Source: a virus
Direction: 5' to 3' (one strand)
IMG/VR virus record: IMGVR_UViG_3300027833_000005
Span: 1 to 36,065 of that record
DNA: 36,065 nt
Positions within the stretch are counted from its first letter, which is position 1, and every line of letters begins with the position of its first letter. Shown piece after piece: positions 1 through 35,304 of the stretch. Below the pieces are notes generated by a model that was not told the DNA's origin, did not search any database, and worked only from the letters and a program-made list of their open reading frames with translations. The position numbers and the translations under genes are program-made.

Positions 1-127
1 AATGCGGTTGAAGTCCATTCAGCATAAATATCTGTATCAAAAGTAGTTATTGATCCAAATGATATGGATGTACCAGACACAGTGCCAACGATAGATTTCC
101 CGTAGTTTCCAACCTGAGCAGATATAA
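1..127. repeat. Terminal direct repeat, left copy (assembly circle overlap)
   Basis: Bases 1-127 are identical to 35939-36065, read base by base at both ends. An exact overlap of 127 bases is what a de Bruijn assembler running at k=127 leaves when a contig closes on itself. The simplest reading is therefore a circular map of 35,938 bp rather than a biological terminal repeat. It lies inside a tail gene, where a genuine phage terminus would be unusual. Confidence 0.95.
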
Positions 128-815
128 CAACTTTGCTATTGCTACTGTCAAATGCAATTGACAGATATTGAACTGCGCTGGATGTCCATGTTACAGCAGA
201 GCCGTAGCTGATGCTTGAACCAGACACCGTTCCTACAATGGCTCTTCCTATACTTGAATTACTATTGTCTTTATACGCAATAACGATTTTATTATTGCTA
301 CTATCAAAAACAGCACTATCAAAAGTAGCAACACCTGAATAAAAAATTACACTTGACCCAAAAGTGATGCTTGTTCCGCTGACTGTCCCGACAACTGACC
401 TCCCATAATCATTTGCGCCCGTGTAAGCTATAACAACTTTATTAGCGTTAGTGTCAAATGCAGGAGAAAAGTCTTGTCCAGCAGAGCTTTCAAATACAGT
501 GGGAGTGCCAAAACTAATGCTCGTGCCTGATACCGTCCCGACAACAGCAGTGCTGTAATTGCTATTGCCGCCATCTCTATAAGCTACAACTATTTTATTA
601 CTACTACTATCAAAGGCAGAACCTATTCCGCCTACGCCAGTAGTAGCACTTTCAAACACAGCAGAAGACCCGATAGCCTGACTTACACTGGTAGAGCCAA
701 CAACACTCACAGTCCCATCTGCATTCACAACAACAGGATTACCATTGGGCAACGCACCACTGGCAATGGCGTTCAGCTTCCGTGCTTGTGTGCTGGGTGT
801 ACCAATGGTGCGCAT
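1..815 (-). CDS. Seven-repeat tail protein A, N-terminal part (continues at 36065)
   Basis: N-terminal 272 residues of a 482-residue protein whose remainder is 35305-36065; the two parts join in frame. It begins MRTIGTPSTQARKLN, then has a segment conserved in its two paralogues (SGALPNGNPVVVNADGTVSVV). Repeats of about 50 residues follow, each with an AFDSSSNKIVVAYRD-like half and a VVGTVSGTSISFG-like half. The joined protein has seven such units, which suggests a seven-bladed beta-propeller (inference). The ATG at 815 follows the stop of the 87-residue gene (820) by a few bases. It probably acts at the virion surface as a tail fibre or receptor-binding protein. The position among late tail genes supports this, but no enzyme motif is visible. 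Confidence 0.85.
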   Translation of the reverse strand, partial: MRTIGTPSTQARKLNAIASGALPNGNPVVVNADGTVSVVGSTSVSQAIGSSAVFESATTGVGGIGSAFDSSSNKIVVAYRDGGNSNYSTAVVGTVSGTSISFGTPTVFESSAGQDFSPAFDTNANKVVIAYTGANDYGRSVVGTVSGTSITFGSSVIFYSGVATFDSAVFDSSNNKIVIAYKDNSNSSIGRAIVGTVSGSSISYGSAVTWTSSAVQYLSIAFDSSNSKVVISAQVGNYGKSIVGTVSGTSISFGSITTFDTDIYAEWTSTA

Positions 816-819
816 ATGA

Positions 820-1083
820 TTATTCCTCGTCGTCTAGTGTTGGGTCTACCCAATCAGGGTTCAGTGTCCAAGTCGCACCGTCAAAGAAATACTTGTTGCC
901 AGTCCAATCCGCAGGGGCGTTGGTCACGTTGTCAGTGACGGTCACTGTGGTGCTGTTCAAGTCACCAATGATGAACTGAGCAGGATCACCCACTGTGATG
1001 TTGTCTGCCGTGGCAGTAATAGTCACGTCATCAGCAAGAAGGTACTTGCTCAAGCCGCTGGATGTTTCAACGATAGTCTTCAT
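820..1083 (-). CDS. Small tail-associated protein, 87 aa
   Basis: Begins MKTIVETSSGLSKYLLADDV and ends with an acidic DPTLDDEE. The middle is Thr/Val-rich and beta-like, followed by NKYFFDGATWTLNPDW. It lies between two of the three seven-repeat paralogues, with 4-bp gaps on both sides. I recognise the general look of small virion accessory proteins encoded beside tail fibres in marine phages but cannot name a family. A role in fibre assembly or attachment is suggested only by position. No membrane segment or signal peptide is visible. Confidence 0.8.
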   Translation of the reverse strand: MKTIVETSSGLSKYLLADDVTITATADNITVGDPAQFIIGDLNSTTVTVTDNVTNAPADWTGNKYFFDGATWTLNPDWVDPTLDDEE

Positions 1084-1087
1084 GGTT

Positions 1088-2524
1088 TTAACCTTTCACG
1101 ATGAGTTTAGTAGCCGACACGGCAGTGCCAGCAAAGACAGATGGATCGGCGGGGGTTTCACTCAACGTGCCGTCAGTTTGGACATAGTAGTCCTGTCCCG
1201 CAGTTAAGCCAGACTGTGCGTCATTAATAGAGCAACCCGTCTGGACAACAGCAGATGTACCGTCAGCAGCAGCGCCCTTGGCAATGCCGATGTAGTTCTT
1301 AGCGGTGAGGTTTGTTGAATCAGCTTGATAAATAACGGCTGTTCCTGCACTGGAAGACCCGCCATCAGCAAAAGCTACTACAACATTCCCCGATGCGTCT
1401 GCCCCAAGAGCGACAGCATTGATGGAGTCGCCACTGTCTAAATCGATAGGGTCGGTGAAAGTAATTGAAGTCCCGCTGACCGTTCCAGACACAACTTTAG
1501 CAGTGCTGGTTGGTTGGTCATTATACGCAATAACAACCGTATTAGAACTAGGGTTATACGTTGCAGACGAAAAATCACCTCTAGTAGATGACGCATTCAC
1601 GACACTACCAAAAGATATACTTGTTCCACTTACCGTTCCGACTACAGCTCCTACAGCTCTAGCCTCAGAGAAAGTGTCTCTATCTCTAAAAACAAGGACT
1701 ACTTTTTGCGCATTGGAGTCATACACGAGAAAGAGATTATCTCCGTAGCTCGTACTCGCCACAACCTTTGTACCGTATGATATGGTTGTACCGCTAACTG
1801 TACCCACAATGGCTGTACTGGCGCTAGAATTTGATGTATCTCGCCACGCTATAACAATTTTTTGAGCGTTCTCATCATAGGTGGCGGCAGTCATGTAACT
1901 ATTACCGCTGTTAAACGTAACAACACCCCCAAAACTGATAGAGGTTCCGCTAACCGTCCCTACAACTGAATCACCTCTAATGGAGGAGGTGTAGTTGCTG
2001 TAAGAAACAACAATTTTATTTGAATTGCTGTCAAAGGCTATGGCGTTATAGTAGGAAGTGACACTGCTGTAAACTGTGGGTGTACCAAAGCTAATGCTAG
2101 TCCCGCTAACTGTACCTACTACCGCTGTTCCGTAGTTGTTGTTGTCCGTATCCGCATAAGCAAAAACCACCTTGTTTGAATTGCTGTCAAAAGCACCCAC
2201 TATAAAAGCTGCGTCGGCGTCAAAAGACACAGGGGTACCAAAGCTAATAGCTGAACCCGAAATAGTGCCAACAATAGCAAGAGCGTTAGCGTTGGCTTCA
2301 CGGTACGCTATAACAATTTTCCCTGCGTTACTATCATAAACAACACTAGGATAGGATGTGGAATCAGACTCAAATACAACGGGGGAGTTTACGCCTTCGG
2401 ATGTTCCACCAACAACACTAACAGTCCCATCAGAATTAACCACAACCGTGTCGCCGTTAGCCAATGCACCACTGGCAACAGCCCGTACTTCACCATCTAC
2501 AGGTGTGTTGCCTATGGTACGCAT
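1088..2524 (-). CDS. Seven-repeat tail protein B (putative beta-propeller)
   Basis: 478 residues. The N-terminal head is MRTIGNTPVDGEVRAVASGALANGDTVVVNSDGTVSVV-like. Seven units of about 50 residues follow, separated by six linkers of the type VVGTVSGTSISFG, each unit carrying YDSNAGKIVIAYRE-like strands. The C-terminal module ends GLTAGQDYYVQTDGTLSETPADPSVFAGTAVSATKLIVKG-like. Exactly seven units in a closed architecture suggests a seven-bladed propeller (inference). Repeats 5 and 6 are more diverged than in the paralogues. The ATG at 2524 shares its last base with the TAA stop of the upstream gene (TAATG), implying translational coupling. Probable tail fibre or adhesin. Confidence 0.88.
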   Translation of the reverse strand: MRTIGNTPVDGEVRAVASGALANGDTVVVNSDGTVSVVGGTSEGVNSPVVFESDSTSYPSVVYDSNAGKIVIAYREANANALAIVGTISGSAISFGTPVSFDADAAFIVGAFDSNSNKVVFAYADTDNNNYGTAVVGTVSGTSISFGTPTVYSSVTSYYNAIAFDSNSNKIVVSYSNYTSSIRGDSVVGTVSGTSISFGGVVTFNSGNSYMTAATYDENAQKIVIAWRDTSNSSASTAIVGTVSGTTISYGTKVVASTSYGDNLFLVYDSNAQKVVLVFRDRDTFSEARAVGAVVGTVSGTSISFGSVVNASSTRGDFSSATYNPSSNTVVIAYNDQPTSTAKVVSGTVSGTSITFTDPIDLDSGDSINAVALGADASGNVVVAFADGGSSSAGTAVIYQADSTNLTAKNYIGIAKGAAADGTSAVVQTGCSINDAQSGLTAGQDYYVQTDGTLSETPADPSVFAGTAVSATKLIVKG

Positions 2525-4317: not shown

Positions 4318-4938
4318 TTAATAGCTAGTGACCCGCATACGCAAACCAGAACCCGCAAATCGCGTGTCGTCAGACGCTTTTTGCAACGATTGCATTGCCG
4401 CCGAGTATAGAGCCGCCCAAGTCTGTGTTCGCTGGTCGTCTGCCAAGTATGGAGCCGACTGAACCAACGCGCCGTACAGGTAAACGTCAGGTGCGTCCTG
4501 TATCAACCAGTTGTATGTGTTTGTGTCTGTAAGGTCAGGTATTGACTGATAATACATGAGCTGCATTCCGTATTCGCCATCTGGCGTCGGAAAAACCTCG
4601 ATACTTTCGCCAACGTGAGAATAGAATTTAGGCGTGCCAGTGCCGTTGGAGTTGTCCTGACGGTACTTAATCATGTCGTCAAGGCTGGCCATCTCTAACG
4701 GTCTAGTTCCATCAGTTGTTAAGCTAAAACGCAAAGTTTCAAGCCAATCGGCAGGAACCTGCACGTATCTGCTGTCAAGCGTAGCGTCAACGCGGTTGAC
4801 CATCTTATAATGGCGCAAGTCGCGGTTTATGCCAGCTTCAGCCAACGAAATGAAGTCTGGAATGACCGCCGTAAGGTCATCGCGGTTAAGCCAGCTTGAA
4901 ATGCTGCTTTTTAACTCTGCGTAAGTTGTGATTGACAT
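4318..4938 (-). CDS. Head-tail adaptor / tail tubular protein A-like, 206 aa
   Basis: 206 residues with the order typical of podovirus adaptor proteins: an N-terminal helical YAELKSSISSWLNRDDLTAVIPDFISLAEAGINRDLR segment (read in parts), then DWLETLRFSL, GESIEVFPTP, YYQSIPDL and a helical C-terminus. In T7-like and P22-like phages the equivalent ring sits below the portal and connects it to the tail tube. The ATG at 4938 shares a base with the stop of the basic 48-residue protein (TAATG). Assignment rests on family resemblance and on late-operon context. Confidence 0.85.
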   Translation of the reverse strand: MSITTYAELKSSISSWLNRDDLTAVIPDFISLAEAGINRDLRHYKMVNRVDATLDSRYVQVPADWLETLRFSLTTDGTRPLEMASLDDMIKYRQDNSNGTGTPKFYSHVGESIEVFPTPDGEYGMQLMYYQSIPDLTDTNTYNWLIQDAPDVYLYGALVQSAPYLADDQRTQTWAALYSAAMQSLQKASDDTRFAGSGLRMRVTSY

Positions 4939-5084
4939 TACTTCTTGCCCTTCTTGGCAGTTTTCGCCGCAGCTTTAAACGCCGAAGCCTTGGGCGCACC
5001 CTTCGCGCCGGGCTTACGCATTTTCTCACCAGAGCCAGCGGCTATTCGCTTCTTCTTGGCGGCAATGTTGCTATAAAGCCCCAT
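4938..5084 (-). CDS. Small basic protein, 48 aa
   Basis: Encodes a 48-residue protein beginning MGLYSNIAAKKKRIAAGSGE and ending KTAAKGKK-like (AAAKTAKKGKK), with about one third Lys/Arg. Similar short Lys/Ala-rich proteins, often starting MGLY.NI..K, lie next to adaptor genes in many podovirus genomes. It may bind packaged DNA or the connector (inference). Its ATG (5084) overlaps the stop of the upstream cysteine-rich gene and its stop overlaps the adaptor start, so the four genes from 6456 to 4318 form a coupled chain. Confidence 0.8.
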   Translation of the reverse strand: MGLYSNIAAKKKRIAAGSGEKMRKPGAKGAPKASAFKAAAKTAKKGKK

Positions 5085-5176
5085 TACTTGCGCCTTTTGT
5101 TAAGGCACTTACCAGCACGCTTACAAGCGGCAGGTGTAGGGCAACCCTTGCAGGTCTTGAATACTGGTGCTTTCAT
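5084..5176 (-). CDS. Cysteine-rich micro-protein, 30 aa
   Basis: A 30-residue product, MKAPVFKTCKGCPTPAACKR followed by AGKCLNKRRK. It has four cysteines in a CxxC-x5-C-x5-C arrangement and a very basic C-terminus, as expected for a tiny metal-binding or nucleic-acid-binding peptide. ATG at 5176 overlaps the TGA of the preceding gene (ATGA) and its TAA overlaps the next ATG, which strongly supports translation despite its size. Function unknown. Confidence 0.7.
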   Translation of the reverse strand: MKAPVFKTCKGCPTPAACKRAGKCLNKRRK

Positions 5177-6456
5177 TGGAGTAATCCTTGTTGTTGGGTT
5201 GGCTGTGTTGGCGAAGGCGAGATAATACCTTGCGATTGCGAGCCTTGGGCCATTGCTTGCTCTACATCCATTGTGGAGACACCCAGCATAGCTGCCGCGC
5301 CTGCGATACCGTACTTTTTCACAATGCTAATTAGCTTGTCATCAAACACAACAAAGTTTTGCGTAGCCGCGTCGGTCCCGCGCGAGCCAGCATCTAAGTA
5401 TTTTATGCCGGGGATGCCTTCAGCCTTCAGATAGTTAGATAATTCAGCAGAGGGGTTTTCAGCGCCACCTTGAAGTTTCTTACCCCCGATGTCCAACATC
5501 AAATCCTTGCCAGTATTCGTTTTATGGGGCAGTAATGGCAATATTGACTGACCCGTCAGTGCCTCATAGTCCGAAATGTATTTGGCAGCCTTTCCTGTCT
5601 GGCTACTCAATGAAGCATCATAATCAAGAAAGTCATCTGGGTTTGCGTCGATATTAACCTCGTACAGACTACCTGCGTTAAAGTTTCCTGTGCGCTTGTA
5701 TTCCTCCAACTGGGCTATCTTATCTCCTTGGATTTGAAGCTGCATGTTAAAGTTGCGCTCCGCACCCTTGAATGCACCAGCTTTATTGCGCTCAAGTAGA
5801 CCGTTTAACTTTTGTTGTGTCTCAAATATGGCGCGATCAACGTCACCACCCACGGCCTTAAGTGTGCGCTCTGCGCCTGCCCTGCCAAAACCTGACAATT
5901 CATCTCGATACTTTTTGGCCACATCCTCTGCCTCTGCAAAGTAAAGCCCGTGCCCGTAAGCCTGCGCACCCTCACCTGTGCCGATTGCGTCCATGCTGAA
6001 CTCGTCAAAATCATGCGGACTGCCGTGATAGGCTTTAATGCCTTGGGAAGTCTCACCAGCAGGCCGTAACCGCACGTTACCGCCGACAGTGCCAAGCGCA
6101 GTCGGATCAAACTCAACACGGTCAGCCAAGTCAGCCACTTTGCGACCAGCAGCCATGATTGGACGTGCAAGCGCATCACCAGCGCCCGGCACAAGGCCAA
6201 TGGCCGCGCCAGTACCCAACAGACCCGCAGCCATAAGTTCACCGCGAGAAGCAGCATCGTATGCCTCGCCCAGCGCTAACGCATCACCAATGCCGGGAAT
6301 AAAGTCTTGGGACGCCTGCACAGCCTTAACACTAGATGGCATCTCGTCACGATTGCGAGCAAGAAGGCCATCTTGATATAAATCCGCATATCCGCCAGAC
6401 GGAGCCGCCGTGCGGTAATCCTCCTGCGAAAACAGCCTGTCCCAAATGCTAGCCAT
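5173..6456 (-). CDS. Putative ADP-ribosyltransferase (ART-PolyVal-like), 427 aa
   Basis: The middle and end of this 427-residue protein match the pattern of the ADP-ribosyltransferase domain of phage and plasmid polyvalent proteins. It has AYHGSPHDFDEFSM (H144), GTGEGAQAYGHGLYFAE (159-175, with the conserved Y) and, near the end, GIPGIKYLD (348-355) and NFVVFDDKLISI (367-378). Such enzymes transfer ADP-ribose from NAD to a target; no target can be read here. Residues 50-105 are Gly/Ala-rich and amphipathic or hydrophobic, and the last 45 are Gln/Ser/Pro-rich. It follows TerL directly, in the late operon, so the protein may be packaged and injected, or may act late on the host; both are inference. 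A catalytic role is likely but unproven. Confidence 0.75.
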   Translation of the reverse strand: MASIWDRLFSQEDYRTAAPSGGYADLYQDGLLARNRDEMPSSVKAVQASQDFIPGIGDALALGEAYDAASRGELMAAGLLGTGAAIGLVPGAGDALARPIMAAGRKVADLADRVEFDPTALGTVGGNVRLRPAGETSQGIKAYHGSPHDFDEFSMDAIGTGEGAQAYGHGLYFAEAEDVAKKYRDELSGFGRAGAERTLKAVGGDVDRAIFETQQKLNGLLERNKAGAFKGAERNFNMQLQIQGDKIAQLEEYKRTGNFNAGSLYEVNIDANPDDFLDYDASLSSQTGKAAKYISDYEALTGQSILPLLPHKTNTGKDLMLDIGGKKLQGGAENPSAELSNYLKAEGIPGIKYLDAGSRGTDAATQNFVVFDDKLISIVKKYGIAGAAAMLGVSTMDVEQAMAQGSQSQGIISPSPTQPTQQQGLLQ

Positions 6457-7856
6457 CAGGCCACCCCTTTTAAATTCCGTCGCAGTGGCTTACCCCACGT
6501 TGACGCCTTGCCGCCGAGTGCCGTCGCAGCGTCAGACGCCAGCGTAAGGCACACAGCGTCCGCCAAGTCAGGTGAAGCTAACCCACGCTTACGCATGTCA
6601 TCCTTACCTTCAGCCTTCATCTTGCCGCTGCTGACGAAACTATACCTGATTGACGTTAATTCTGCAATAAGCTGCTCGTTACGTGGCAACTTAGCTCCGC
6701 GCTGCTCCAGCCAGCCACGCATCTTAAACCACAACTCAGCCCGCAAGTTCGTATATGTATCCTTCATACTTGGCGATTCCGCCACGTTAATGCCACGCAC
6801 AGGCAGGCCAAGCTCACGCAAACGATCCACAACGCCACCACCCATGCCAATAACATCAACCATAATCTCACTAGGCCGTATACTCATCGGCAAGCCATCA
6901 TACTCAGCCTTCACCCGACCCACAGTCTGCATCAAATCCAAACCCTGCCAACTGTTAATCTCAGTTATCGTATTACCCTGACGCTTGGCCAACGCCGTCT
7001 TGTCCGACCCAAACCGTGCAACGTCCAAACCCCAGATGACCGTCGCGTGGTCGTCAGGCTCAATGTCGCGATGCACCGCAGCATCAACCAAATGAAACGG
7101 CACAATCGTGTCGTCATCCGCCAGCGGAAACTCACCAAGCACGCGAATCCGATAAGCATTGCTCTCCTCGCCATACCGCAACTTCATCTCGTCGATAAAA
7201 TCACGCGATACCAACGGCGACTTAATACACGACCAATGGTGGCACTTCCAACTGCCCGACAGCCGCGTCTGCGTCTCAAAGAACGTACCACTTGACCGCG
7301 TAGGGTTAGACGCCAGCAACGTAACCGCACTGTGACCAGACATCGAACCAGCCGCCGCCTCAAAGACCTGTTCAGGCACACCCGACGCCTCGTCCACAAC
7401 CAACATAACATTCGCAGAGTGAACACCAGCCAACGCCTCTGGCGTCTCAGCCCGACTCGTCCGAGCCGAAATAAAACCCTCCGACGGCGCAGCAATCAAC
7501 GACACCCGGTCATTCTTCACGTCAAGTATCGGACGCAACGCCTCCGGCAACTCATTGATCCAACGCTTCAACTCAGCAAACAACGCATCAAACAACTGGC
7601 CACTGGTCGGCGCAGTCACCACAACCTTGAACGGAAACCGCGTCATCGCAAACCAAAGCATGGCCCACGAGAACGTCGTAGACTTCCCCGTACCATGCCC
7701 AGAGCGAACACTAATCTTGCGCTCACCATTGGCAATATCAACAAGCAACGCCTGCTGATAATCAAACGGCTCAGCACCCAAAATTTCACGCACAAACGCA
7801 ACTGGGTCATCCCTATACGTCGAAACAAAGTCTACTAACGGGTTCTCTTCACTCAT
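6456..7856 (-). CDS. terL: Terminase large subunit
   Basis: 466 residues from the ATG at 7856, which overlaps the end of TerS by 8 bp; upstream in-frame codons lie inside TerS. Walker A is RSGHGTGKST (51-60), Walker B LVVDEAS (152-158), followed by a coupling motif LLASNPTR (180-187). The RNaseH-like nuclease begins GLDVARFGSD (D278), with a second acid in IMVDVIGMGGG and a last in SPDLADAV. This is the ATP-driven motor that packages DNA into the prohead and cuts it. It shares a base with the next gene's start at 6456. The packaging mode cannot be told from sequence alone. Confidence 0.96.
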   Translation of the reverse strand: MSEENPLVDFVSTYRDDPVAFVREILGAEPFDYQQALLVDIANGERKISVRSGHGTGKSTTFSWAMLWFAMTRFPFKVVVTAPTSGQLFDALFAELKRWINELPEALRPILDVKNDRVSLIAAPSEGFISARTSRAETPEALAGVHSANVMLVVDEASGVPEQVFEAAAGSMSGHSAVTLLASNPTRSSGTFFETQTRLSGSWKCHHWSCIKSPLVSRDFIDEMKLRYGEESNAYRIRVLGEFPLADDDTIVPFHLVDAAVHRDIEPDDHATVIWGLDVARFGSDKTALAKRQGNTITEINSWQGLDLMQTVGRVKAEYDGLPMSIRPSEIMVDVIGMGGGVVDRLRELGLPVRGINVAESPSMKDTYTNLRAELWFKMRGWLEQRGAKLPRNEQLIAELTSIRYSFVSSGKMKAEGKDDMRKRGLASPDLADAVCLTLASDAATALGGKASTWGKPLRRNLKGVA

Positions 7857-8346
7857 CGTCGCCACCCTCAATCTCAACAATCGTCGGCGTCACGTTGCGC
7901 ATCTGACGCAAAGCCTGCAAGTGCAAATCTCCAATATTAACATTAACGACATCACCCTTCGGCTGGAACCTCGCCGCATCGTACACACCCGTCATCCACT
8001 TGCGCACACCAATCTGCTCTCTGGCCGCCGCTACGTGCGTCGTCGTCAAGTCAGGCCCAACCAAGTTATCCGCAATCTCCAACGCCTCGTCAGCCATCGC
8101 GTCAGCACGAACCTTGCGGCCCTCCGCCAGCGCACGCTTAAAGTCATCATTCGCGTTTAACTTACGGCTGACAAACGAACGATCCAAACCCAACTCATTA
8201 GCCAGCGTCGCAACAGTCCCGCCGTCAGCAACCCACTGAAAAATAAAATCAGGCCCAGTGATGCTCTCATTCGCCTCACGCGCAGCTATCTTTGCCATCG
8301 CCTCTATAGACGTAAACAACGCCCGCTTCTTTGGTTGACCAGCCAT
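7849..8346 (-). CDS. terS: Terminase small subunit-like protein
   Basis: 165 residues. A helix-turn-helix (GTVATLANELGLDRSFVSRKLN, residues about 49-70) is followed by an Ala/Glu-rich helical segment (RALAEGRKVRADAMADEALEIADNL) and a C-terminal HVAAAREQIGVRKWMTGVYD segment. This layout is typical of small terminase subunits, which bind the packaging site and recruit TerL. It is the first gene of the late leftward unit, after more than 400 bp of non-coding DNA that holds candidate promoter and packaging elements. It overlaps terL by 8 bp. Confidence 0.9.
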   Translation of the reverse strand: MAGQPKKRALFTSIEAMAKIAAREANESITGPDFIFQWVADGGTVATLANELGLDRSFVSRKLNANDDFKRALAEGRKVRADAMADEALEIADNLVGPDLTTTHVAAAREQIGVRKWMTGVYDAARFQPKGDVVNVNIGDLHLQALRQMRNVTPTIVEIEGGDDE

Positions 8347-15120: not shown

Positions 15121-15561
15121 ATGCTTGCTGCAACCTGCCTTGCAATGGCCGTTTACTATGAAGCCCGTTCAGAGCCGCTTGACGGCCAGCGTGCCGTCGC
15201 TGATGTCGTCTTGGCTCGCAAGCATCATGTATCGTACCCCGACACAGTTTGTGCAGTGGTCGCTGAAGACCGTGGCAGCAAGGATTGGGACTGCCAGTTT
15301 AGTTTCATGTGTGACGGCCTTCCAGAGCGACCCACAGGCGCTGCATGGACCACTGCGCAGGCCGTAGCAGCCAAGGCAATCGCTGAACCAGCCATTGTTC
15401 ACGCCACGCATTACCACACAATAAATGTGAAGCCTATCTGGCGGCACGATTTGACCGTAGTCGGCAAGATTGGCTCTCACGTATTCTACACAGATGGCAG
15501 TTGCCATTTGCCAACGTGTTCACTGCGCCCACAAGCGCGACCACAGGGAGACGTGTTATGA
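15121..15561 (+). CDS. SleB/CwlJ-like cell-wall hydrolase (early)
   Basis: 146 residues. MAVYYEARSEPLDGQRAVADVVLAR (read from residue 9; catalytic-type E14) and, later, HATHYHTINVKPIW and IGSHVFYTD follow the Hydrolase_2 (SleB/CwlJ) pattern of lytic transglycosylase-like enzymes. A second protein of this type is the virion protein at 27097-28725. AGGAGG sits 8 nt before the ATG. It is unusual to find such an enzyme at the head of the early unit and apart from the lysis genes. The N-terminus is hydrophobic, but no cleavable signal is clear. Confidence 0.82.
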   Translation: MLAATCLAMAVYYEARSEPLDGQRAVADVVLARKHHVSYPDTVCAVVAEDRGSKDWDCQFSFMCDGLPERPTGAAWTTAQAVAAKAIAEPAIVHATHYHTINVKPIWRHDLTVVGKIGSHVFYTDGSCHLPTCSLRPQARPQGDVL

Positions 15562-18459: not shown

Positions 18460-18625
18460 CTTCGACCTCTTTCGCTGTCAATATTTTCTCAAGGCGATTA
18501 TCCTTGATTTCGTATTCTAACTCGTCACGGCCATCTGCACGACCCCGGTAGTACACAGTTACAATGGCCAATGCCGCAGCGCCAATCAACGCTGCGTACA
18601 GCTTCAGTTTGCCCAGCAAAAACAT
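18383..18625 (-). CDS. i-spanin (Rz-like)
   Basis: 80 residues with an N-terminal transmembrane helix (KLYAALIGAAALAIVTVYY, about residues 8-26) and a charged coiled-coil C-terminus (RDELEYEIKDNRLEKILTAK). This is the topology of an inner-membrane spanin. Its 3' third encodes the o-spanin in another frame. It overlaps the amidase stop (ATGA at 18625). It acts in the last step of lysis by fusing inner and outer membranes. Confidence 0.88.
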   Translation of the reverse strand: MFLLGKLKLYAALIGAAALAIVTVYYRGRADGRDELEYEIKDNRLEKILTAKEVEDELQNASDDDIAARASRWVRSDSDG

Positions 18626-19281
18626 CAGCGGTCACCTTTGTTCCATTTGCTAAGACGCTCAACGTCAATCACGCCCAGCGCCACCATCGCTACCACTGCC
18701 AGAACCCCCATGATTGCTAGGTTCTGCCAAGGCAGCCCACCGACAACACCAACAAGCGGCGTGGCGACAGATGCCATCTTTGCAACAGAAGAAGCTTGGA
18801 TTGTCTTGGTTTGGGCAATCCTCTTCCGCTCTGGCTTCTTTTCGGTTTCTGCGCTGTTTAGCCATGATGTCACTTGAAAGCACGGACATTGCTTGGCCGA
18901 AACCTCGTTATGTCCACGCACCTTTGTGATTGATGGGTACTCCATGCGCAGTTGAGCAATTAGCTTGCGCAGCGCACGATCCTGTTCAGGCGTAAAGTTT
19001 TCTTCAAACTTGTCGTCTTGATTGCCGCCGTGTCCACCCCATAGGGAGATAGCAACTGAACCCGTGTTGTGGCCCTTCTGCGCGGCTGGCGTCTTTTCAA
19101 TTGGGCGACCTTCAGTAATCGTTCCATCACGATCCACAAAATACGAATAGCCCACATCTGACCAGCCTCGGTCCAAATGCCAGCGCTTGCACTCGGCAGC
19201 TTTCTCGCTAGACCGACGTCCAGCCCACCACTCTGCGCGTGTTGCTGTGCAATGTACGAATATGCTATCTAGTTTTCTCAT
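18625..19281 (-). CDS. N-acetylmuramoyl-L-alanine amidase endolysin with C-terminal membrane segment
   Basis: 218 residues. The first 140 are an Amidase_2/T7-lysozyme-type domain: IFVHCTATRAEWWAGRR (H10), GYSYFVDRDGTITEGRP (45-60), HNTGSVAISLWGG, and the pair RGHNEV (H124) and SAKQCPCF (K130, C132). H10, H124 and C132 match the T7 zinc ligands. A Lys-rich linker leads to a hydrophobic stretch (LAIMGVLAVVAMVALGV, about 188-204) and a short charged tail, so the enzyme may be membrane-tethered. It would cleave the bond between muramic acid and L-alanine. Located between a small membrane-protein gene and the spanins. Confidence 0.92.
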   Translation of the reverse strand: MRKLDSIFVHCTATRAEWWAGRRSSEKAAECKRWHLDRGWSDVGYSYFVDRDGTITEGRPIEKTPAAQKGHNTGSVAISLWGGHGGNQDDKFEENFTPEQDRALRKLIAQLRMEYPSITKVRGHNEVSAKQCPCFQVTSWLNSAETEKKPERKRIAQTKTIQASSVAKMASVATPLVGVVGGLPWQNLAIMGVLAVVAMVALGVIDVERLSKWNKGDR

Positions 19282-25058: not shown

Positions 25059-27107
25059 CTATTCACTTCGACCTGAGAGTAGCCCGCCAGTAGCACCGAG
25101 AACCCCAGAATACATTTCAGGACGGTTAATCGCCCGCTGCCTTGATGCCACGTCTGTTGTCTCTCGCGCCATCAATCGTTGCAAGATTTCACGCTGCGCT
25201 TCGGGGTCCGCATTAAATATCATTTCTGACAATTTGGACGCGCTCTTTTCGTTCATACCACTCAGCCTTGATGCAGCCTGAGAGCCCGCCATTGATGCGG
25301 CACCAAGGACATCTCCAGTGGCCGCTCTGGCACCGATTCCGTAGATTGCCGATGGGTCAATACTTGCGTCACTGCTTTGAAGCAGCCTTTCTGCTGTGTC
25401 TGATCCACCGAAAACTTTTCTTTGCGTGCGCATCTTGTCAGACTGTACCTTCATCAACCTCTCAAAACGCTCAAATTGCTCAGAGTTGTCAAAGGCAAGC
25501 CTCAGAGCTGCTCGACGGCGAGGCGTGCCAAAAACTGTTTTTACAAAATCAGTTGCGTCGCCAGTTTTTGAGGCTAGTTCTTCAACTTGGCTTACAAGCC
25601 CAACCCTTAACGCCTCTTTTTCCGCAGAAGACATTTGACTTACATTCTTGACCAACTGCTTTTCTGAAGTCTTGTTGAAATCAAAGCCAGCATCGTAAGC
25701 GCGCTTTAAGCTGGCGTTATCTGCAAATTGTTTGTTCGCAGACTTGTAAATGTCATTTTGAGACGCAATTTCACCATCCCAAGATTTCTTTAGCTTTGTT
25801 AAAACCCTGCCTCTAGGCGTGGCTTTGCGTGTCAGATTATCTGTCTCAGCATCAATCAGGACATCAAGCCCCTTTTTAATGTTATGAGCCACCTCTGTCG
25901 GCATAAGAACCTTCTCACCTTTAGACGCTGCCTGACCTAAAAATTGTCCAAGATTTGATGGCATTCCCGATACGTCAATGTCCGGGTCAATGTCTGCCAG
26001 CTCAACGGCCTTGTTGTAAGCGTCCTGAATCACTTTGCTGCGAGCCATGCCCTGAAACGGAGTGGCGTCCAAATCAACGCTGTAAGCCCTTTTGTACGCT
26101 GGTCCTGCTTGCTTCTGAACCTTATCAGCCAAGTCATCAAGATACTGAACGCCAGTTGCGCCCTCCGTACCTGACATTTTAGCTGCTTGCTCTGAGATTT
26201 GCTCGGCCTGACCAGCTTGCCTCTCCGAAAACTGCTCTAAAACTCCTTGGCGGGATTTATTTGGAACTGCCTGCGCACTCCAAGCTGCTCCCCGCGTACC
26301 TTCGCCCAAATCGGCAAGTGTTATGTCGGATACCCCAAGGTCGCGAGCTTCCTGAAGAACCTGACCAGCGCGCTCTGGTGTCATACCTTCACGATCAATA
26401 GCTTCAAGCATCTTGCGCTCTGCAAATGTTGTGGCTCGCTTTTCGCCACCAACGCCAACTGAATCTAATACATTCCTAGCAACGCGGCCAACCTGCTGCG
26501 TAGCAATGGGAGCAACAGCACCAAGGGTCCCGCCGATAGTCCCGCCCAATGCTGCGCTCTTAGCCCTCTCTGCAAGACCACCTTCGCCAGCACCAAATCC
26601 AGCAACAGCACCCTCCGCTGCACCAATTTTAGCTGCGCGCAAAGCTGTAGGAGCGAGTCGAGCTGCGGTTGATGCGCCTACAGCGGCTGATCCTGCGCCT
26701 GCTGTCAAAGCACCCGCCGCTAAAGTTGGCAGGATAGCGCCACCCATCTCATATGCCATTGACTCAAGTGGGTTTTCAGTCCTGTAGCTGTCAAGTTTGT
26801 CGCGGACAATCTTTAATCTTTCGTTGTAATCTTTTCCCTCAAAACCAAAAGCCGAACCTAAAGCTGATATAGGGTTGCGAATGGCCGCTTCAAGCTCATC
26901 AGCAAAACCCAAGGTGACGCCCTGCGCCAAAGAGCGTACCCGCTGCTTTTCAGCAGGCGGCGCGCTTTCCACCTCGTCACTAGATAAAGCGCCCGATGAT
27001 GATTGACGCCTTACATTTTCAACAAAATTGTTTTGCTCTGATGGGTTAAGGTTTGCAAAACTGTCATCAACCTCAACGCGGCCGAGTCCGTCAATTTCAA
27101 TTATCAT
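25059..27107 (-). CDS. Internal virion / ejection protein, 682 aa
   Basis: 682 residues. It opens MIIEIDGLGRVEVDDSFANL, followed by GVTLGFADELEAAI and a long Gly/Ala-rich hydrophobic tract (about 110-200: GGAILPTLAAGALTAGAGSA and GAGEGGLAERAKSAALGGTI). It then becomes a helical Gln/Lys-rich protein. This is the profile of podovirus ejection proteins, which leave the head with the DNA and build a channel through the host membranes. It overlaps the transglycosylase-type gene by 11 bp and precedes the portal. Function inferred from layout. Confidence 0.85.
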   Translation of the reverse strand: MIIEIDGLGRVEVDDSFANLNPSEQNNFVENVRRQSSSGALSSDEVESAPPAEKQRVRSLAQGVTLGFADELEAAIRNPISALGSAFGFEGKDYNERLKIVRDKLDSYRTENPLESMAYEMGGAILPTLAAGALTAGAGSAAVGASTAARLAPTALRAAKIGAAEGAVAGFGAGEGGLAERAKSAALGGTIGGTLGAVAPIATQQVGRVARNVLDSVGVGGEKRATTFAERKMLEAIDREGMTPERAGQVLQEARDLGVSDITLADLGEGTRGAAWSAQAVPNKSRQGVLEQFSERQAGQAEQISEQAAKMSGTEGATGVQYLDDLADKVQKQAGPAYKRAYSVDLDATPFQGMARSKVIQDAYNKAVELADIDPDIDVSGMPSNLGQFLGQAASKGEKVLMPTEVAHNIKKGLDVLIDAETDNLTRKATPRGRVLTKLKKSWDGEIASQNDIYKSANKQFADNASLKRAYDAGFDFNKTSEKQLVKNVSQMSSAEKEALRVGLVSQVEELASKTGDATDFVKTVFGTPRRRAALRLAFDNSEQFERFERLMKVQSDKMRTQRKVFGGSDTAERLLQSSDASIDPSAIYGIGARAATGDVLGAASMAGSQAASRLSGMNEKSASKLSEMIFNADPEAQREILQRLMARETTDVASRQRAINRPEMYSGVLGATGGLLSGRSE

Positions 27108-28725
27108 TTACTATTCTCCAACCCATGTTCGGTGACACTGGCGCTTCGGGGATTTCAGCTCCCGACACACCGAACCTGCCTCTGCGCCGCTCAATGGCCG
27201 CCACCTTATTGGCGCGGGCGCGCTCGTTAATGACAAGCAGCTCCTGCACGGCTGCATATGCTGTCGCTTCAGTTTTTGCATCGCCAAGCTCTTTCGCTGC
27301 GCGTTGCGCGTCCCCTTCAGTTTGGACCCCCTTATTTAAACGCAGACTTTCGTTTACCAGTCTCGTCTTGAAGCGATCAAACTCTTGGCGAGCCTTTGCT
27401 GTAGCTATGTTTTCTGACCCCAAGCCGACAGCGCCGAACGCCCCTCTGATAAATCCACCTAAGCCTATGTCTAGCGGACCCGTAAACTCACCTGACTCTG
27501 GTTTGTATCCAAAATCCTTTATAATCCCGCCAATGTCTTGGATCAAATTGTCATACGATTCAATCGCCACAAAGTCAGATTCTTCGCTCTTTCGCGCGTC
27601 CGTTGGCAAAGGCGCTTTTCTCTTTTCAGCAGCTTCAATTCGCTGCTCCGCCGCAATGACATCCTCATTTAATGTTATTTTCGGAGCTGCATTTGGGCCA
27701 TCTGGATAAGTAATGCTATATTTTCCGCCGCCACCGACCTCGCTTTTGCGCCCTCTCATTTGAGATGCAAGTTGCTGCCCCATCGCAGTGGGCGATAGCT
27801 GCGTCAGTATTGCCATCGCCTCTTGGTTGTTTCCAGAACGCAATGCCGCCGCTGCCTGCATGGCAAGATTGCGCGATTCCTCGTCTCTTGACACTGCGAT
27901 TGCGTCTTTAGGTGTCATATAGCCATCTCGGACCAAATCTCCGGCTCCGGGCATGTATTTATTTAGATATTCTGCTGTCTTGTTACGCGCTTTATTCTCA
28001 GTACGCTGCTTTGCCACATTATCAGCAATCTCTTCCATGCCCATGATGCCCATGCGGCCAAAGCCCTGCGCCAGTGTTGCCGCCGTGTCTTTGAAGCTGT
28101 CACGGTTGTAGAAGCGCTGGCCAGTTTCACCCTCCGCGCCCTCCTGCATCTTCTGAATGCCGATATTTTCAAGTAGGCCGCGTGGCTTTTGCTGTTGCAT
28201 CATCGGTTTAGTCTCCGTTTCGGATGTCTGTGTCGGCGCGAGTATGCCCTTGGGCGACTTGCCCAGCGCACGCGTAGTGTCGTCGGCAATAGCCTGATTG
28301 GGGTTTGGTTTTTTGCCCGCATCGGCAAAGCCAAAAACATGATCGCCAATCTGCTTCCAGTCACCGCCAGCCTTATCACGCCCCCAGTTTGGACTGGAAA
28401 TTGACGGGTTGTAGTAGTGAGTCGCGCCACCAGTTTCGTCTTTGTAGCCGCCAGCAATAAGCGCGTCTGCCGCTTTATATGCGTCGTCGCTCGCCCGCAT
28501 GTTGGCCATATCCTGACCTTGCGCCCCACCAGCGTAACCCGTTGCGCTATTCCATGCCGAAAATTGACCCGGCTTGAGGATAACACCACGAAGGCCATTG
28601 CCATAGCCAGCAGCGTTGGCGCGATTCATAATGACCGAGCCAGCGGCCATCATGCCGCCGAAGCCTTGATTGCCAGCTTCGGCTTGCAGGGTTCTAGCTA
28701 GAAGTTCCCGGTCATTGATATTCAT
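27097..28725 (-). CDS. Internal virion protein with SleB-like cell-wall hydrolase domain
   Basis: 542 residues. The first 135 are a SleB/CwlJ (Hydrolase_2) domain: ELLARTLQAEAGNQGFGGMM (catalytic-type E16), AAGSVIMNRANAAGYGNGLR, ILKPGQFSAWNS, THYYNPSISSPNWG and IGDHVFGFAD. The remaining 400 are helical. This combination is a virion-associated peptidoglycan hydrolase that opens a path for DNA injection. Second SleB-type gene in the genome (the other is early, 15121-15561). TAATG coupling with the upstream gene at 28725. Confidence 0.9.
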   Translation of the reverse strand: MNINDRELLARTLQAEAGNQGFGGMMAAGSVIMNRANAAGYGNGLRGVILKPGQFSAWNSATGYAGGAQGQDMANMRASDDAYKAADALIAGGYKDETGGATHYYNPSISSPNWGRDKAGGDWKQIGDHVFGFADAGKKPNPNQAIADDTTRALGKSPKGILAPTQTSETETKPMMQQQKPRGLLENIGIQKMQEGAEGETGQRFYNRDSFKDTAATLAQGFGRMGIMGMEEIADNVAKQRTENKARNKTAEYLNKYMPGAGDLVRDGYMTPKDAIAVSRDEESRNLAMQAAAALRSGNNQEAMAILTQLSPTAMGQQLASQMRGRKSEVGGGGKYSITYPDGPNAAPKITLNEDVIAAEQRIEAAEKRKAPLPTDARKSEESDFVAIESYDNLIQDIGGIIKDFGYKPESGEFTGPLDIGLGGFIRGAFGAVGLGSENIATAKARQEFDRFKTRLVNESLRLNKGVQTEGDAQRAAKELGDAKTEATAYAAVQELLVINERARANKVAAIERRRGRFGVSGAEIPEAPVSPNMGWRIVNDN

Positions 28726-30084: not shown

Positions 30085-31350
30085 TTATGCGTCCTTCTTA
30101 ACTAGACCAACTGCAAAAAACTGCGCAGTTCGTAGTGTAAATGTAATCGCGCCCGCAACGGTGCGCTTTTTGCCGTTCGCAAAATCAATATAGCGACGGA
30201 ACTCGCCGTAATGCTCACGCGCCTTGCCTTGCTTAATTTTCTTATTACCGCAATGACGATAACCACGGCGGATAGCCTCGCCCCACCATTTGCCGTGCAG
30301 TACATTCATGCACCACACAACAGCTTCGCGCTTGGTTGTCGGAGAAAACGCACCTGAGTTGACGGCGTGTGTTGCGACTACGCATCCATCGCCAGAGCTG
30401 CCAGAGTAACCACTGTCGCTTGAGCTGTCTTTTTTGCCTGCACCAATGTTTAAGGCCCGCGAAACAGCATTGCCGGGAAGATCAACGTCAGTTGTTAAAG
30501 AGTTGCCGAGGTCGGAGACAGCACCGCCGCCTGAGTATGTGTCGCCGCTTGTACCTTTTCCACCACCGTCAAACATATCCGCGAAGCCAGTGTAATTGCT
30601 GGGCTGACCGGGAACGATAGTACCTCGGCCTCCAGTAACTGAGGGGGCAAGGTTAAATCCAAGATCAACTGACGTACCATCCCCATTTTGCATTATTGCC
30701 GGACCGCCAGTCCCCATAGGGCTTGAATCAGAATACTGACGCTGCTCAGTAAAGTTTCCGGGTGTATTATCAACAAAACCATCTGGCCTTACGGTTGTCG
30801 GCGCTACAACTGTGTAAGGGGCTTCGTTGCCTTGGAAGTCAGTTGATGTATAGACTGGAGCTGACGCACCACCTCCGCCGTTGCTCCCGCCGCCGCCATT
30901 GCCACCAGTATCAGCAGGAGGCTGCGTATAATCAACAGTTGGCCCTACTCTGCTTCCAGCTTCACCCGTGTATGGGTCAATGAAAAGGCTATCAATAAAC
31001 TCTTTTTGGCCCGGACGCTGCCTGCCAAGCTCTGCAAGAGATTGCTCGTACATTGGGGCAGAAGAATAACCCTGAACCCCGCCCGCATATGTCGTCGGCG
31101 CTGGCATACCGCCCATAATGTCTTGCTGGCTAGTTGGAGATGACATACCAAACGCATCAGCAGTGTTCGCTGTGTTCTGAAATGCAGCCTGCTGCATCGG
31201 AGAAAATGCTGCGACATCTGGGCCGTAGTACGGCGTGTAGCCTATTTTAGAAATATCGTCTGCTCGTGACAAGTTGCGTCGCGCTGCATCCTCAATGTAT
31301 TGAGGGACTGTGACTGAGCTTGTGCTTGAGCCGCCTTTTCCGCCTGACAT
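30085..31350 (-). CDS. Virion structural protein, 421 aa
   Basis: 421 residues. It begins MSGGKGGSSTSSVTVPQYIE and DAARRNLSRADDISKIGYTP. A long Gly/Ser/Pro-rich and Asn-rich middle (110-330) follows, then a compact C-terminal part (SGDGCVVATHAVNSGAFSPT, AVVWCMNVLHGKWWGEAIRR, GYRHCGNKKIKQGK) with conserved Cys, His and Trp. The mosaic of disordered and compact parts fits an internal or tail protein made with the ejection set. TAATG-type overlap with the upstream gene at 31350. No catalytic motif identified. Confidence 0.78.
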   Translation of the reverse strand: MSGGKGGSSTSSVTVPQYIEDAARRNLSRADDISKIGYTPYYGPDVAAFSPMQQAAFQNTANTADAFGMSSPTSQQDIMGGMPAPTTYAGGVQGYSSAPMYEQSLAELGRQRPGQKEFIDSLFIDPYTGEAGSRVGPTVDYTQPPADTGGNGGGGSNGGGGASAPVYTSTDFQGNEAPYTVVAPTTVRPDGFVDNTPGNFTEQRQYSDSSPMGTGGPAIMQNGDGTSVDLGFNLAPSVTGGRGTIVPGQPSNYTGFADMFDGGGKGTSGDTYSGGGAVSDLGNSLTTDVDLPGNAVSRALNIGAGKKDSSSDSGYSGSSGDGCVVATHAVNSGAFSPTTKREAVVWCMNVLHGKWWGEAIRRGYRHCGNKKIKQGKAREHYGEFRRYIDFANGKKRTVAGAITFTLRTAQFFAVGLVKKDA

Positions 31351-33843: not shown

Positions 33844-35301
33844 TTATGTTTTTACTACTAAACTTGTAGCAGATATTGCGGTCCCTGCAAAGACACTTGG
33901 GTCGGCAGCGGTCTCTCCTATCGTCCCGTCTGTCTGAACGTAATAACTCTGCCCTGCCGTGAGGCCAGACTGGTTTGTGCTGAGTGAGCCGATGATGTCT
34001 ACCGTGGCGCTGCTACCGTCTGCGTATGTGCCGCCAGTAGAGATGCCGATGTAGTTCTCGGAGGTGAGGTTTGTGGATGTGTAGGCGGTCTGCCTAACAA
34101 TTGCAGTACCTTTATTTGTGCTTGCAACTGGAGCATATGAAACAACAGAAACCTTTTCATTCATGTCGTAAGCCATTGATGTATAATTACTAGCACCAGT
34201 GCTATCCAAAATAGTATCAGAGCCAAAACTTACAGTAGTTCCACTAATCTCTCCCTCTTGCAGAGTTAAATAGCTTGAGTTTCCAGCGTCTGAATAGACA
34301 ATAACCACTTTGTTTGCGGCAGAGTTATAAACAATTCTTAAATAATCTGATTGATTGGCATTAAAAACAGTTTTTGACCCAAACGAAATAGATGTTCCAG
34401 AAACAGTTCCGACTATGGCTGAACCTTGATAACCACCACTGTAACTGTTGTACGCTATAACTACTTTATTGCTGACACTATCATAAGCAGGTATGTTGTA
34501 AATATTAGTGGCGCTGCTATCGTATACGACCGCACTGCCAAACGAAATAGATGTTCCACTTACTGTTCCTACTACAGCTGTGCCTTTTTGAGAGTTACCA
34601 TTGTCATTATAGGCAACCACTACCTTATTATTTAAGCTATCAAAAGTAATGCCGACATGATCTGATCTTGCACTCTCGAACACAACAGGTGAGCCAAAGC
34701 TAATAGATGTTCCAGAGACAGTGCCAACTACTGCCGTACCATAATTTGAGTTACCAGCATCTCTGTATGCAATTACAACTTTGTTGTTAGAACTGTCAAA
34801 TGTAGCCGCTGTATAAATTGTGCCTCCCGCTTCAAAAACCACTGGCGTTCCGAAGCTAATAGATGTTCCAGAAACATTCCCAACTACTGCCGTCCCCTTC
34901 CCAGCGGTGGCATTGTCATAGTAAGCAATAACAACCTTGTTTTCGTTGCTATCAAATGTTGCCGTTACATAATAAATAGACGCTGAGTTAAAAACTACTG
35001 GGGAACCGAAACTAATAGATGTCCCTGAGACAGTGCCGACTACTGCTGTGCCGTGTCCAGAATTACCCCCATCACTATAAGCAAATACAACTTTATTACT
35101 ACTGCTATCATAGGCAGCAGCCTGCCAAGTTGTTTGACCTGTTTCGTAAACAGTTTCAGACCCAATAGCCGAGCTTACAGAGGTTGAAGAAACAACACTC
35201 ACAGTACCGTCAGCATTCACAACAACAGGCTTACCATTCGGCAGAGTACCAGAAGCCTTGGCCCTATGCGTACCCTCTTTTAACTCTGGGATAATTCTCA
35301 T
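33844..35301 (-). CDS. Seven-repeat tail protein C (putative beta-propeller)
   Basis: 485 residues; third member of the family at 815-35305 (A) and 1088-2524 (B). Head MRIIPELKEGTHRAKASGTL, then NGKPVVVNADGTVSVV, seven units of about 50 residues (for example SPVVFNSASIYYVTATFDSN, then ENKVVIAYYD), with linkers such as AVVGTVSGTSISFG. The tail module ends QSYYVQTDGTIGETAADPSV, FAGTAISATSLVVKT. Seven units again suggest a seven-bladed propeller. Units 2-5 are more alike here than in B, suggesting recent internal repeat exchange. Probable tail fibre or adhesin. Confidence 0.88.
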   Translation of the reverse strand: MRIIPELKEGTHRAKASGTLPNGKPVVVNADGTVSVVSSTSVSSAIGSETVYETGQTTWQAAAYDSSSNKVVFAYSDGGNSGHGTAVVGTVSGTSISFGSPVVFNSASIYYVTATFDSNENKVVIAYYDNATAGKGTAVVGNVSGTSISFGTPVVFEAGGTIYTAATFDSSNNKVVIAYRDAGNSNYGTAVVGTVSGTSISFGSPVVFESARSDHVGITFDSLNNKVVVAYNDNGNSQKGTAVVGTVSGTSISFGSAVVYDSSATNIYNIPAYDSVSNKVVIAYNSYSGGYQGSAIVGTVSGTSISFGSKTVFNANQSDYLRIVYNSAANKVVIVYSDAGNSSYLTLQEGEISGTTVSFGSDTILDSTGASNYTSMAYDMNEKVSVVSYAPVASTNKGTAIVRQTAYTSTNLTSENYIGISTGGTYADGSSATVDIIGSLSTNQSGLTAGQSYYVQTDGTIGETAADPSVFAGTAISATSLVVKT

Positions 35302-35304
35302 GGT

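What the first reader, a model, noticed from the sequence alone, without database searches (positions are those of the whole stretch)
5173..6456. ART-PolyVal-type ADP-ribosyltransferase encoded as a stand-alone late gene next to TerL
HGSPHDFDEF, the YGHGLYF core and the NFVVFDDKLISI end match the ART domain usually embedded in very large polyvalent proteins injected by phages and plasmids. Here it is a separate 427-residue protein with a Gly/Ala-rich amphipathic N-terminal part and a Gln/Pro tail, in the late unit. It may be packaged with the DNA and modify a host target on entry, as T4 Alt does, or block a host defence.
Basis: partly seen in the sequence, partly recalled or inferred. Interest (0 to 1): 0.72.

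Follow-up and report, generated by a model that had tools for sequence, protein, structure and literature searches.

The report
Phage ADP-ribosyltransferase in swappable cargo slot
A small phage carries, directly behind its DNA-packaging motor gene, a stand-alone enzyme of the ADP-ribosyltransferase (diphtheria-toxin/PARP) fold, and near-identical phages carry a quite different protein end at exactly this spot, so it is most likely an exchangeable weapon loaded into the particle and injected into the host, although the loading itself has not been shown.

Summary
The gene is real (minus strand 5173-6456, 427 aa). Its start overlaps the TerL stop (TGATG) behind a good ribosome-binding site. Residues 139-384 form a confidently predicted ART domain matching diphtheria toxin and tankyrase; the best chain is the cyanophage A4 pre-ejectosome. 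H144 (64/69 relatives; Gln in 5), Y172 and N367 (69/69) and D372 (57/69) are conserved. Pfam ART-PolyVal is hit only below its cutoff. Relatives abound in viral contigs, are scarce in cellular genomes, and are mostly stand-alone proteins of 332-650 aa, often beside portal, TerL or scaffold genes, so stand-alone is the normal form here. The new point is the surroundings: the interval between TerL and the next virion gene is a hypervariable slot. A phage about 95% identical in flanking DNA keeps the same N-terminal ~119 residues and C-terminal tail but has a different, ART-like domain. Others carry PBECR nuclease, GNAT, DUF7178 or unknown domains, joined in many combinations to at least seven N-terminal modules. 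Best reading: a compact, cassette-swapped relative of polyvalent proteins, packaged and ejected to modify a host target on entry. Packaging, activity and target are inferred. A strong GLL tripeptide excess in slot proteins is unexplained.

The parts
5173..6456 (-). ART cargo gene, 427 aa
   Evidence: ORF and translation; relatives
6052..6456 (-). N-terminal module NT-A, residues 1-135: Gly/Ala-rich, helical at low confidence; shared with slot proteins that have other C-terminal domains
5305..6042 (-). ART domain, residues 139-384, with helical inserts
   Evidence: model mostly pLDDT above 90; diphtheria toxin, tankyrase and A4 pre-ejectosome matches
6025..6027 (-). codon of H144 (strand 1 His)
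   Evidence: His in 64 of 69, Gln in 5
5941..5943 (-). codon of Y172 (strand 2 Tyr)
   Evidence: 69 of 69
5356..5358 (-). codon of N367, in the register of the PARP Glu by my alignment
   Evidence: 69 of 69
5341..5343 (-). codon of D372, Asp of the HYD set
   Evidence: 57 of 69
5176..5301 (-). C-terminal tail, residues 386-427, ending QQQGLLQ; last codons overlap the ribosome-binding site of the next gene
5201..6098 (-). segment replaced in L007 between flanks about 95% identical
5084..5176 (-). small gene s1, 30 aa, four Cys
4938..5084 (-). small gene s2, 48 aa, Lys-rich
4318..4938 (-). virion structural protein phrog_2941, downstream border of the slot
6456..7880 (-). terminase large subunit, upstream border of the slot, TGATG overlap with the ART gene
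7849..8346 (-). terminase small subunit

Best explanation
The gene encodes a probably NAD-dependent ADP-ribosyltransferase that works as an exchangeable virion cargo effector. Shown by computation: it lies in the late unit with its start overlapping the TerL stop; residues 139-384 form an ART domain of the HYD type; the gene occupies a fixed slot where closely related phages exchange effector domains behind a limited set of N-terminal modules. Inferred: the Gly/Ala-rich N-terminal module and/or tail takes the protein into the head with the ejection proteins; it enters the cell with the DNA; H144 and Y172 hold NAD+ and D372 and/or N367 assist transfer of ADP-ribose to a host macromolecule early in infection. 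The rapid exchange of domains at the slot suggests an arms race, so blocking a host defence is somewhat more likely than re-tuning RNA polymerase as T4 Alt does.
For: ART fold: mostly pLDDT above 90 over 139-384; diphtheria toxin Z 8.7 and tankyrase-2 Z 8.1; PF18760 E=9e-6. Conserved candidate active site over 69 diverse sequences. Late head-module location: TGATG overlap with TerL; relatives beside portal, TerL, scaffold and virion genes. Precedents for ejection: best structural match is the cyanophage A4 pre-ejectosome, whose long protein A4L_27 carries YHGT..GSGTYFS..LVINPDAVSVI; the same ART family sits in a 1974-aa protein next to a phrog_418 internal virion protein, with homologues in BPP-1, Caulobacter and Vibrio podoviruses. 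Cargo-swap pattern: L007, about 95% identical in flanking DNA, has a different C-terminal domain; module matrix; 50 non-redundant complete slots with ART-HYD 5, ART-c 12, PBECR5 2, DUF7178 2, other large 16, no large protein 13. Family nearly absent from cellular genomes (6 loci) against at least 538 viral stretches.
Against: No virion proteomics for this phage. Mass-spectrometry data exist for phiGT1, which has the closest cultured relative (45% over 67% of the query), but that table is in a supplement that could not be read. The N-terminal module has no recognised packaging or MuF domain and a low-confidence model. Five of 69 relatives have Gln for the His. The Pfam score is under the gathering cutoff. 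The match to A4 has rmsd 5.3 over 152 residues, and sequence support for its ART segment is weak (PF18760 E=0.21; hhalign probability 0.4%).
Confidence: 0.6

Rival explanations
1. An ART that acts in the cell where it is made, late in infection (like T4 ModA/ModB in timing or as a superinfection or competitor block), and is not packaged.
For: Late, TerL-coupled expression alone does not prove packaging; no known packaging domain is recognised; the slot could simply be a tolerant site for accessory genes, as it is empty of large proteins in 13 of 50 cases.
Against: Conserved placement among head genes in many unrelated lineages; ART domains within ejection-type proteins; kept N-terminal modules in front of unrelated enzyme domains suggest a shared delivery role.
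Confidence: 0.2
2. A structural or ejection-channel component in which the ART fold is a non-catalytic relic used for binding.
For: Gly/Ala-rich N-terminal part similar in composition to the likely ejection protein IVP682; His replaced by Gln in some relatives.
Against: Y172 and N367 invariant and H144 kept in 64 of 69 sequences at about 40% identity; the domain is replaced wholesale by unrelated domains in near-identical phages, which a needed structural part would not allow.
Confidence: 0.1
3. A toxin of a toxin-antitoxin or addiction module carried by the phage, with s1/s2 or another small gene as antidote.
For: ART toxins of TA systems are among the structural matches (MbcT, NatT); small unknown genes follow directly.
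Against: s1/s2-like genes also lie beside quite different cargo genes and do not follow the ART; no TA, macro or hydrolase domain in the proteins scanned; family almost absent from cellular genomes; no PADLOC match.
Confidence: 0.05

Closest known systems
ART-PolyVal (PF18760), the Tox-ART-HYD2-like ARTs of polyvalent proteins (PMC5512222)
   Same: Motifs HGSP and GxGLYF, His/Tyr/Asp set, late-gene neighbourhood
   Different: Score under the Pfam cutoff; single recognised domain with large helical inserts; close family mostly stand-alone; invariant Asn367
Polyvalent proteins of phages (e.g. Roseovarius Plymouth podovirus 1 vRNAP-ART, P1 DarB)
   Same: Overlapping domain repertoire (ART, PBECR, GNAT) at one late locus
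   Different: Here domains come singly or in twos and threes on short proteins and are swapped at one slot between near-identical phages, not strung together in giants
T4 Alt
   Same: Proposed logic: ART injected with the DNA
   Different: Alt belongs to the R-S-E clade (PMC5512222); different active site
phiGT1_5 (QLB38217.1) of Sulfitobacter phage phiGT1
   Same: 45% identity over 67% of the query, stand-alone 387 aa, in the head module
   Different: Lies between a structural protein and the scaffold gene; different N-terminal part without GLL; annotated only as hypothetical
A4L_27 of Anabaena cyanophage A-4L (presumed chain B of PDB 9k3a)
   Same: ART-like fold matched in a pre-ejectosome chain (Z 10.1)
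   Different: ART-like part near the C-terminus of a 1717-aa protein; weak sequence similarity only
Polymorphic toxins (PMC3482391)
   Same: Kept N-terminal part, exchangeable C-terminal effector domain
   Different: No immunity gene and no secretion system recognised; the carrier would be the phage particle

Membership tests
ART-PolyVal PF18760 | Score at or above the Pfam gathering cutoff (31.2 bits) | tested here: not met
   26.9 bits, E=9.1e-6, covers profile 8-46 only; one relative (L012) reaches 31.9
ART superfamily | ART fold | tested here: met
   High-confidence model of 139-384; diphtheria toxin Z 8.7, 127 residues, 3.5 A; tankyrase-2 Z 8.1, 112 residues, 2.8 A. Foldseek alone gave nothing significant in the PDB but 31 matches at E<=0.001 in BFVD, several named ART-PolyVal-like
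Tox-ART-HYD2-like clade | His in strand 1, Tyr in strand 2, Asp in strand 5 | tested here: met
   H144 in strand 140-146, Y172 in strand 170-174, D372 just after strand 366-370; D372 is not invariant (57 of 69)
ART superfamily | Transferase or NADase activity | not testable with these tools
   needs biochemistry
Polyvalent proteins | Two or more disparate domains in one polypeptide | tested here: not met
   Only an ART domain is recognised in this protein; some slot relatives carry two or three (L119, L137, L140)
Polyvalent proteins | Encoded among late/virion genes | tested here: met
   TerL and phrog_2941 neighbours
Virion-packaged effectors (Alt-like) | Protein present in the particle and injected | not testable with these tools
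   a phiGT1 virion mass-spectrometry table exists but its supplement was not readable
T4 Alt / R-S-E ARTs | Arg-Ser-Glu active site | tested here: not met
   H-Y-(N/D) pattern instead
MuF-fused effectors | MuF domain in the same protein | tested here: not met
   No MuF match in Pfam or PHROGs scans
Toxin-antitoxin ART toxins | Adjacent antitoxin or ADP-ribose hydrolase | tested here: inconclusive
   No such domain among the window proteins scanned; two tiny unknown genes follow

The most novel reading that the evidence does not exclude
A tag-addressed cargo system: in this phage lineage short linear motifs built on Gly-Leu-Leu (and in another lineage Pro-Val-x-His-Asp-Pro-Phe) at the ends and module joints of slot proteins act as loading or processing signals, so that any effector domain recombined into the slot is packaged into the head, a phage counterpart of encapsulin cargo peptides.
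Probability: 0.18. Interest if true: 0.82.

Novelty: new variant of a known kind. Interest (0 to 1): 0.55.

Why it matters
Phage ARTs near head genes and polyvalent proteins were already described. What is added is a fixed late locus at which near-identical phages exchange effector domains behind a kept N-terminus. That is a natural collection of matched, fairly small proteins (about 300-850 aa) for testing how short-tailed phages load enzymes into the head and what those enzymes do in the first minutes of infection. If the N-terminal modules or GLL motifs prove to be loading signals, they would explain how unrelated enzymes reach the same particle and give a way to find injected effectors from sequence alone.

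Tried and rejected
Sequence search of the PDB found no relative, by single sequence or profile. Foldseek against the PDB gave no significant match for the whole model; only the second-look aligner did. NCBIfam and PADLOC gave nothing. A structure prediction of the swapped domain of L007 (ART-c) failed (mean pLDDT 49), so that domain is called ART-like on its motifs, on weak Pfam hits of relatives (L112 E=1.5e-6; L164 E=1.1e-4) and on a weak profile match (P=1.4e-4, probability 53%). The likely ejection protein at 25059-27107 has too few relatives to test the GLL motif there. The conserved stretch 4925-5200 first looked like non-coding DNA guiding recombination, but it encodes two small genes. 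The C-terminal GLL copy cannot be counted as a pure protein signal because it overlaps the ribosome-binding site of the next gene. The cyanophage A4 paper (PNAS 2025, cited in PMC12810830) is not held. The MuF-fusion idea was dropped: no MuF domain.

Full report
WHAT IS THERE. The ORF 5173-6456 is on the minus strand and gives a 427-aa protein with all the motifs quoted. TerL (6456-7880, minus) precedes it; the sequence AAAAGGGGTGGCCTGATGGCT shows a ribosome-binding site and a TGATG stop/start overlap. The ART stop codon in turn overlaps the start of a 30-aa Cys-rich gene (5176-5084), followed by a 48-aa Lys-rich gene (5084-4938) and the phrog_2941 virion gene (4938-4318), each overlapping the next. 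The window is one virus record with a 127-nt exact direct terminal repeat, so probably a complete, circularly assembled genome of about 35.9 kb. The portal is SU10-like; the nearest annotated TerL are from uncultivated phages and, at 54%, Sinorhizobium phage phiM5. The first 25 kb have no nucleotide-level relative in the annotated phage collection.

IS IT AN ART. Pfam ART-PolyVal is hit at E=9e-6, below its cutoff and over motifs I/II only. A 70-sequence alignment gave a model with mean pLDDT 77; most of 139-384 is above 90, while 1-138 is largely around or below 70. The second-look structural alignment places the cyanophage A4 pre-ejectosome chain first (Z 10.1, 152 residues, rmsd 5.3), then diphtheria toxin (Z 8.7) and tankyrase-2 (Z 8.1). 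The chain numbering up to 1603 fits only A4L_27 (1717 aa) of Anabaena phage A-4L, which has an ART-type motif set at about 1425-1600; this assignment is inference. The start of the diphtheria toxin alignment (model 137 to toxin 14) would put H144 on the toxin's His21 if ungapped; that is my reading of the ranges, not a printed pair. Across 69 sequences H144 is His in 64 and Gln in 5, Y172 and N367 are invariant, and D372 is present in 57. This fits the His-Tyr-Asp set described for polyvalent-protein ARTs (PMC5512222). N367 falls, by alignment of NFVVFD with the PARP EYIVYD pattern (from memory), in the place of the PARP catalytic Glu. Activity is not shown.

HOW COMMON IS THE STAND-ALONE FORM. 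Of 57 complete non-redundant relatives 53 are 332-650 aa and four are 834-1363 aa. Recognisable neighbours are mainly portal, TerL, scaffold, head closure, virion proteins and endolysins; many neighbours have no assigned family. The domain does also occur inside giant proteins: a 1974-aa protein beside a phrog_418 internal virion protein, homologous over its later part to large proteins of BPP-1, Caulobacter and Vibrio podoviruses, and a 1489-aa protein with several ART, GNAT and NUDIX domains.

THE CARGO SLOT. Among contigs with related TerL, the interval from TerL to the phrog_2941 gene is hypervariable. The clearest case is L007: DNA 94.8% identical to the window from 10000 to 6098, i.e. 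through TerL and the first ~119 codons of this gene, then no similarity, then 94.2% identity again from 5201, about ten codons before the stop. The replaced part encodes another domain with YHGT..GKGIYFAP..RSRFARFDP. L096 (96.6% identical DNA up to the slot; S2941 protein 97% identical) has only a 186-aa small gene there; L100 has yet another large protein. In 50 non-redundant complete slots I found the present ART in 5, the RSRFARFDP type (ART-c) in 12, PBECR5 nuclease in 2, DUF7178 in 2, other large proteins in 16 and no large protein in 13 (PBECR5, GNAT and DUF7178 named by Pfam; the counts use motif patterns). At least seven N-terminal modules are joined to these domains in many combinations: NT-A occurs with ART-HYD, ART-c, DUF7178 and several unknown domains, NT-B with ART-HYD, ART-b, ART-c, PBECR5 and others. 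This resembles polymorphic toxins: kept front, changing back.

MECHANISM. The best reading is a cargo effector made with the head proteins, loaded into the capsid and ejected. Shown by computation: fold, conserved site, late coupled location, slot exchange. Inferred: loading, ejection, NAD-dependent modification and target. Packaging is supported by analogy with ART domains in ejection-type proteins and by the published estimate that 44% of phage ARTs lie in contexts suggesting head packaging (PMC9503650). An existing virion mass-spectrometry table for phiGT1, which encodes a 45% identical relative, could settle packaging for the branch, but I could not read it.

AN UNEXPLAINED PATTERN. The tripeptide GLL occurs 143 times in 42 representative slot proteins against 13.6 expected from shuffles; after grouping homologous contexts 65 remain against 14.0, the strongest of the 60 commonest tripeptides. 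Core genes show no excess (53 against 47.3); TerL has 1 against 27.5. Copies sit near both ends and at module joints. In the window protein they are at 30, 78, 219 and 424. Another set of ART proteins, some directly behind portal genes, repeats PV[DE]HDPF at one or both ends. These patterns were noticed after the fact, so they are leads; the last GLL here also overlaps the next gene's ribosome-binding site.

COMPARISON AND NOVELTY. Phage ARTs by head genes, PBECR and ART effectors, and polyvalent proteins are known (PMC5512222, PMC9503650). I found no description of this exchangeable slot in the papers searched, within the limits of that library. I rate it a new variant of a known kind.

Noticed in passing
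ART protein residues 30, 78, 219, 424 (window 5173-6456); slot proteins in L002-L183: Strong excess of the tripeptide GLL near ends and module joints of slot proteins, not seen in core genes.
   Followed up: partly
L050:4188-5897, L063:3346-4491, L068:2470-3615, L072:342-1400, L092:4659-5810, L095:3069-4217: ART proteins of another lineage carry PV[DE]HDPF motifs at the N- and/or C-terminus, three copies in some.
   Followed up: partly
window 4938-5176: Two tiny overlapping genes, 30 aa with four Cys and 48 aa Lys-rich, whose DNA occurs before or after different cargo genes in relatives.
   Followed up: partly
window 1-2524 and 33844-36065: Three long proteins (1-815 joined to 35305-36063, 1088-2524, 33844-35301) built of a roughly 52-residue repeat with GTVSGTSISFG; 13 DNA copies of 65 nt. 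Possibly fibre-like.
   Followed up: no
window 30085-31350 (residues about 249-287) and small slot genes such as L102:6422-6937: A shared DxFDGGGxGxSGD-like element links a protein with a DNA ejection protein match (phrog_4287) to the small slot gene.
   Followed up: partly
window 15121-15561 and 27097-28725: Two separate Hydrolase_2 cell wall hydrolase domains, one in a likely virion protein, besides an amidase at 18625-19281.
   Followed up: no
L017:3564-9488: A virus assigned to a methanogen host carries the same ART domain in a 1974-aa protein homologous to bacterial podovirus proteins; the host assignment may deserve a check.
   Followed up: no
L006:892-2259: Relative with Gln in place of the catalytic-type His (AYQGSPHDF), as in 5 of 69 sequences; possibly inactive versions.
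   Followed up: no
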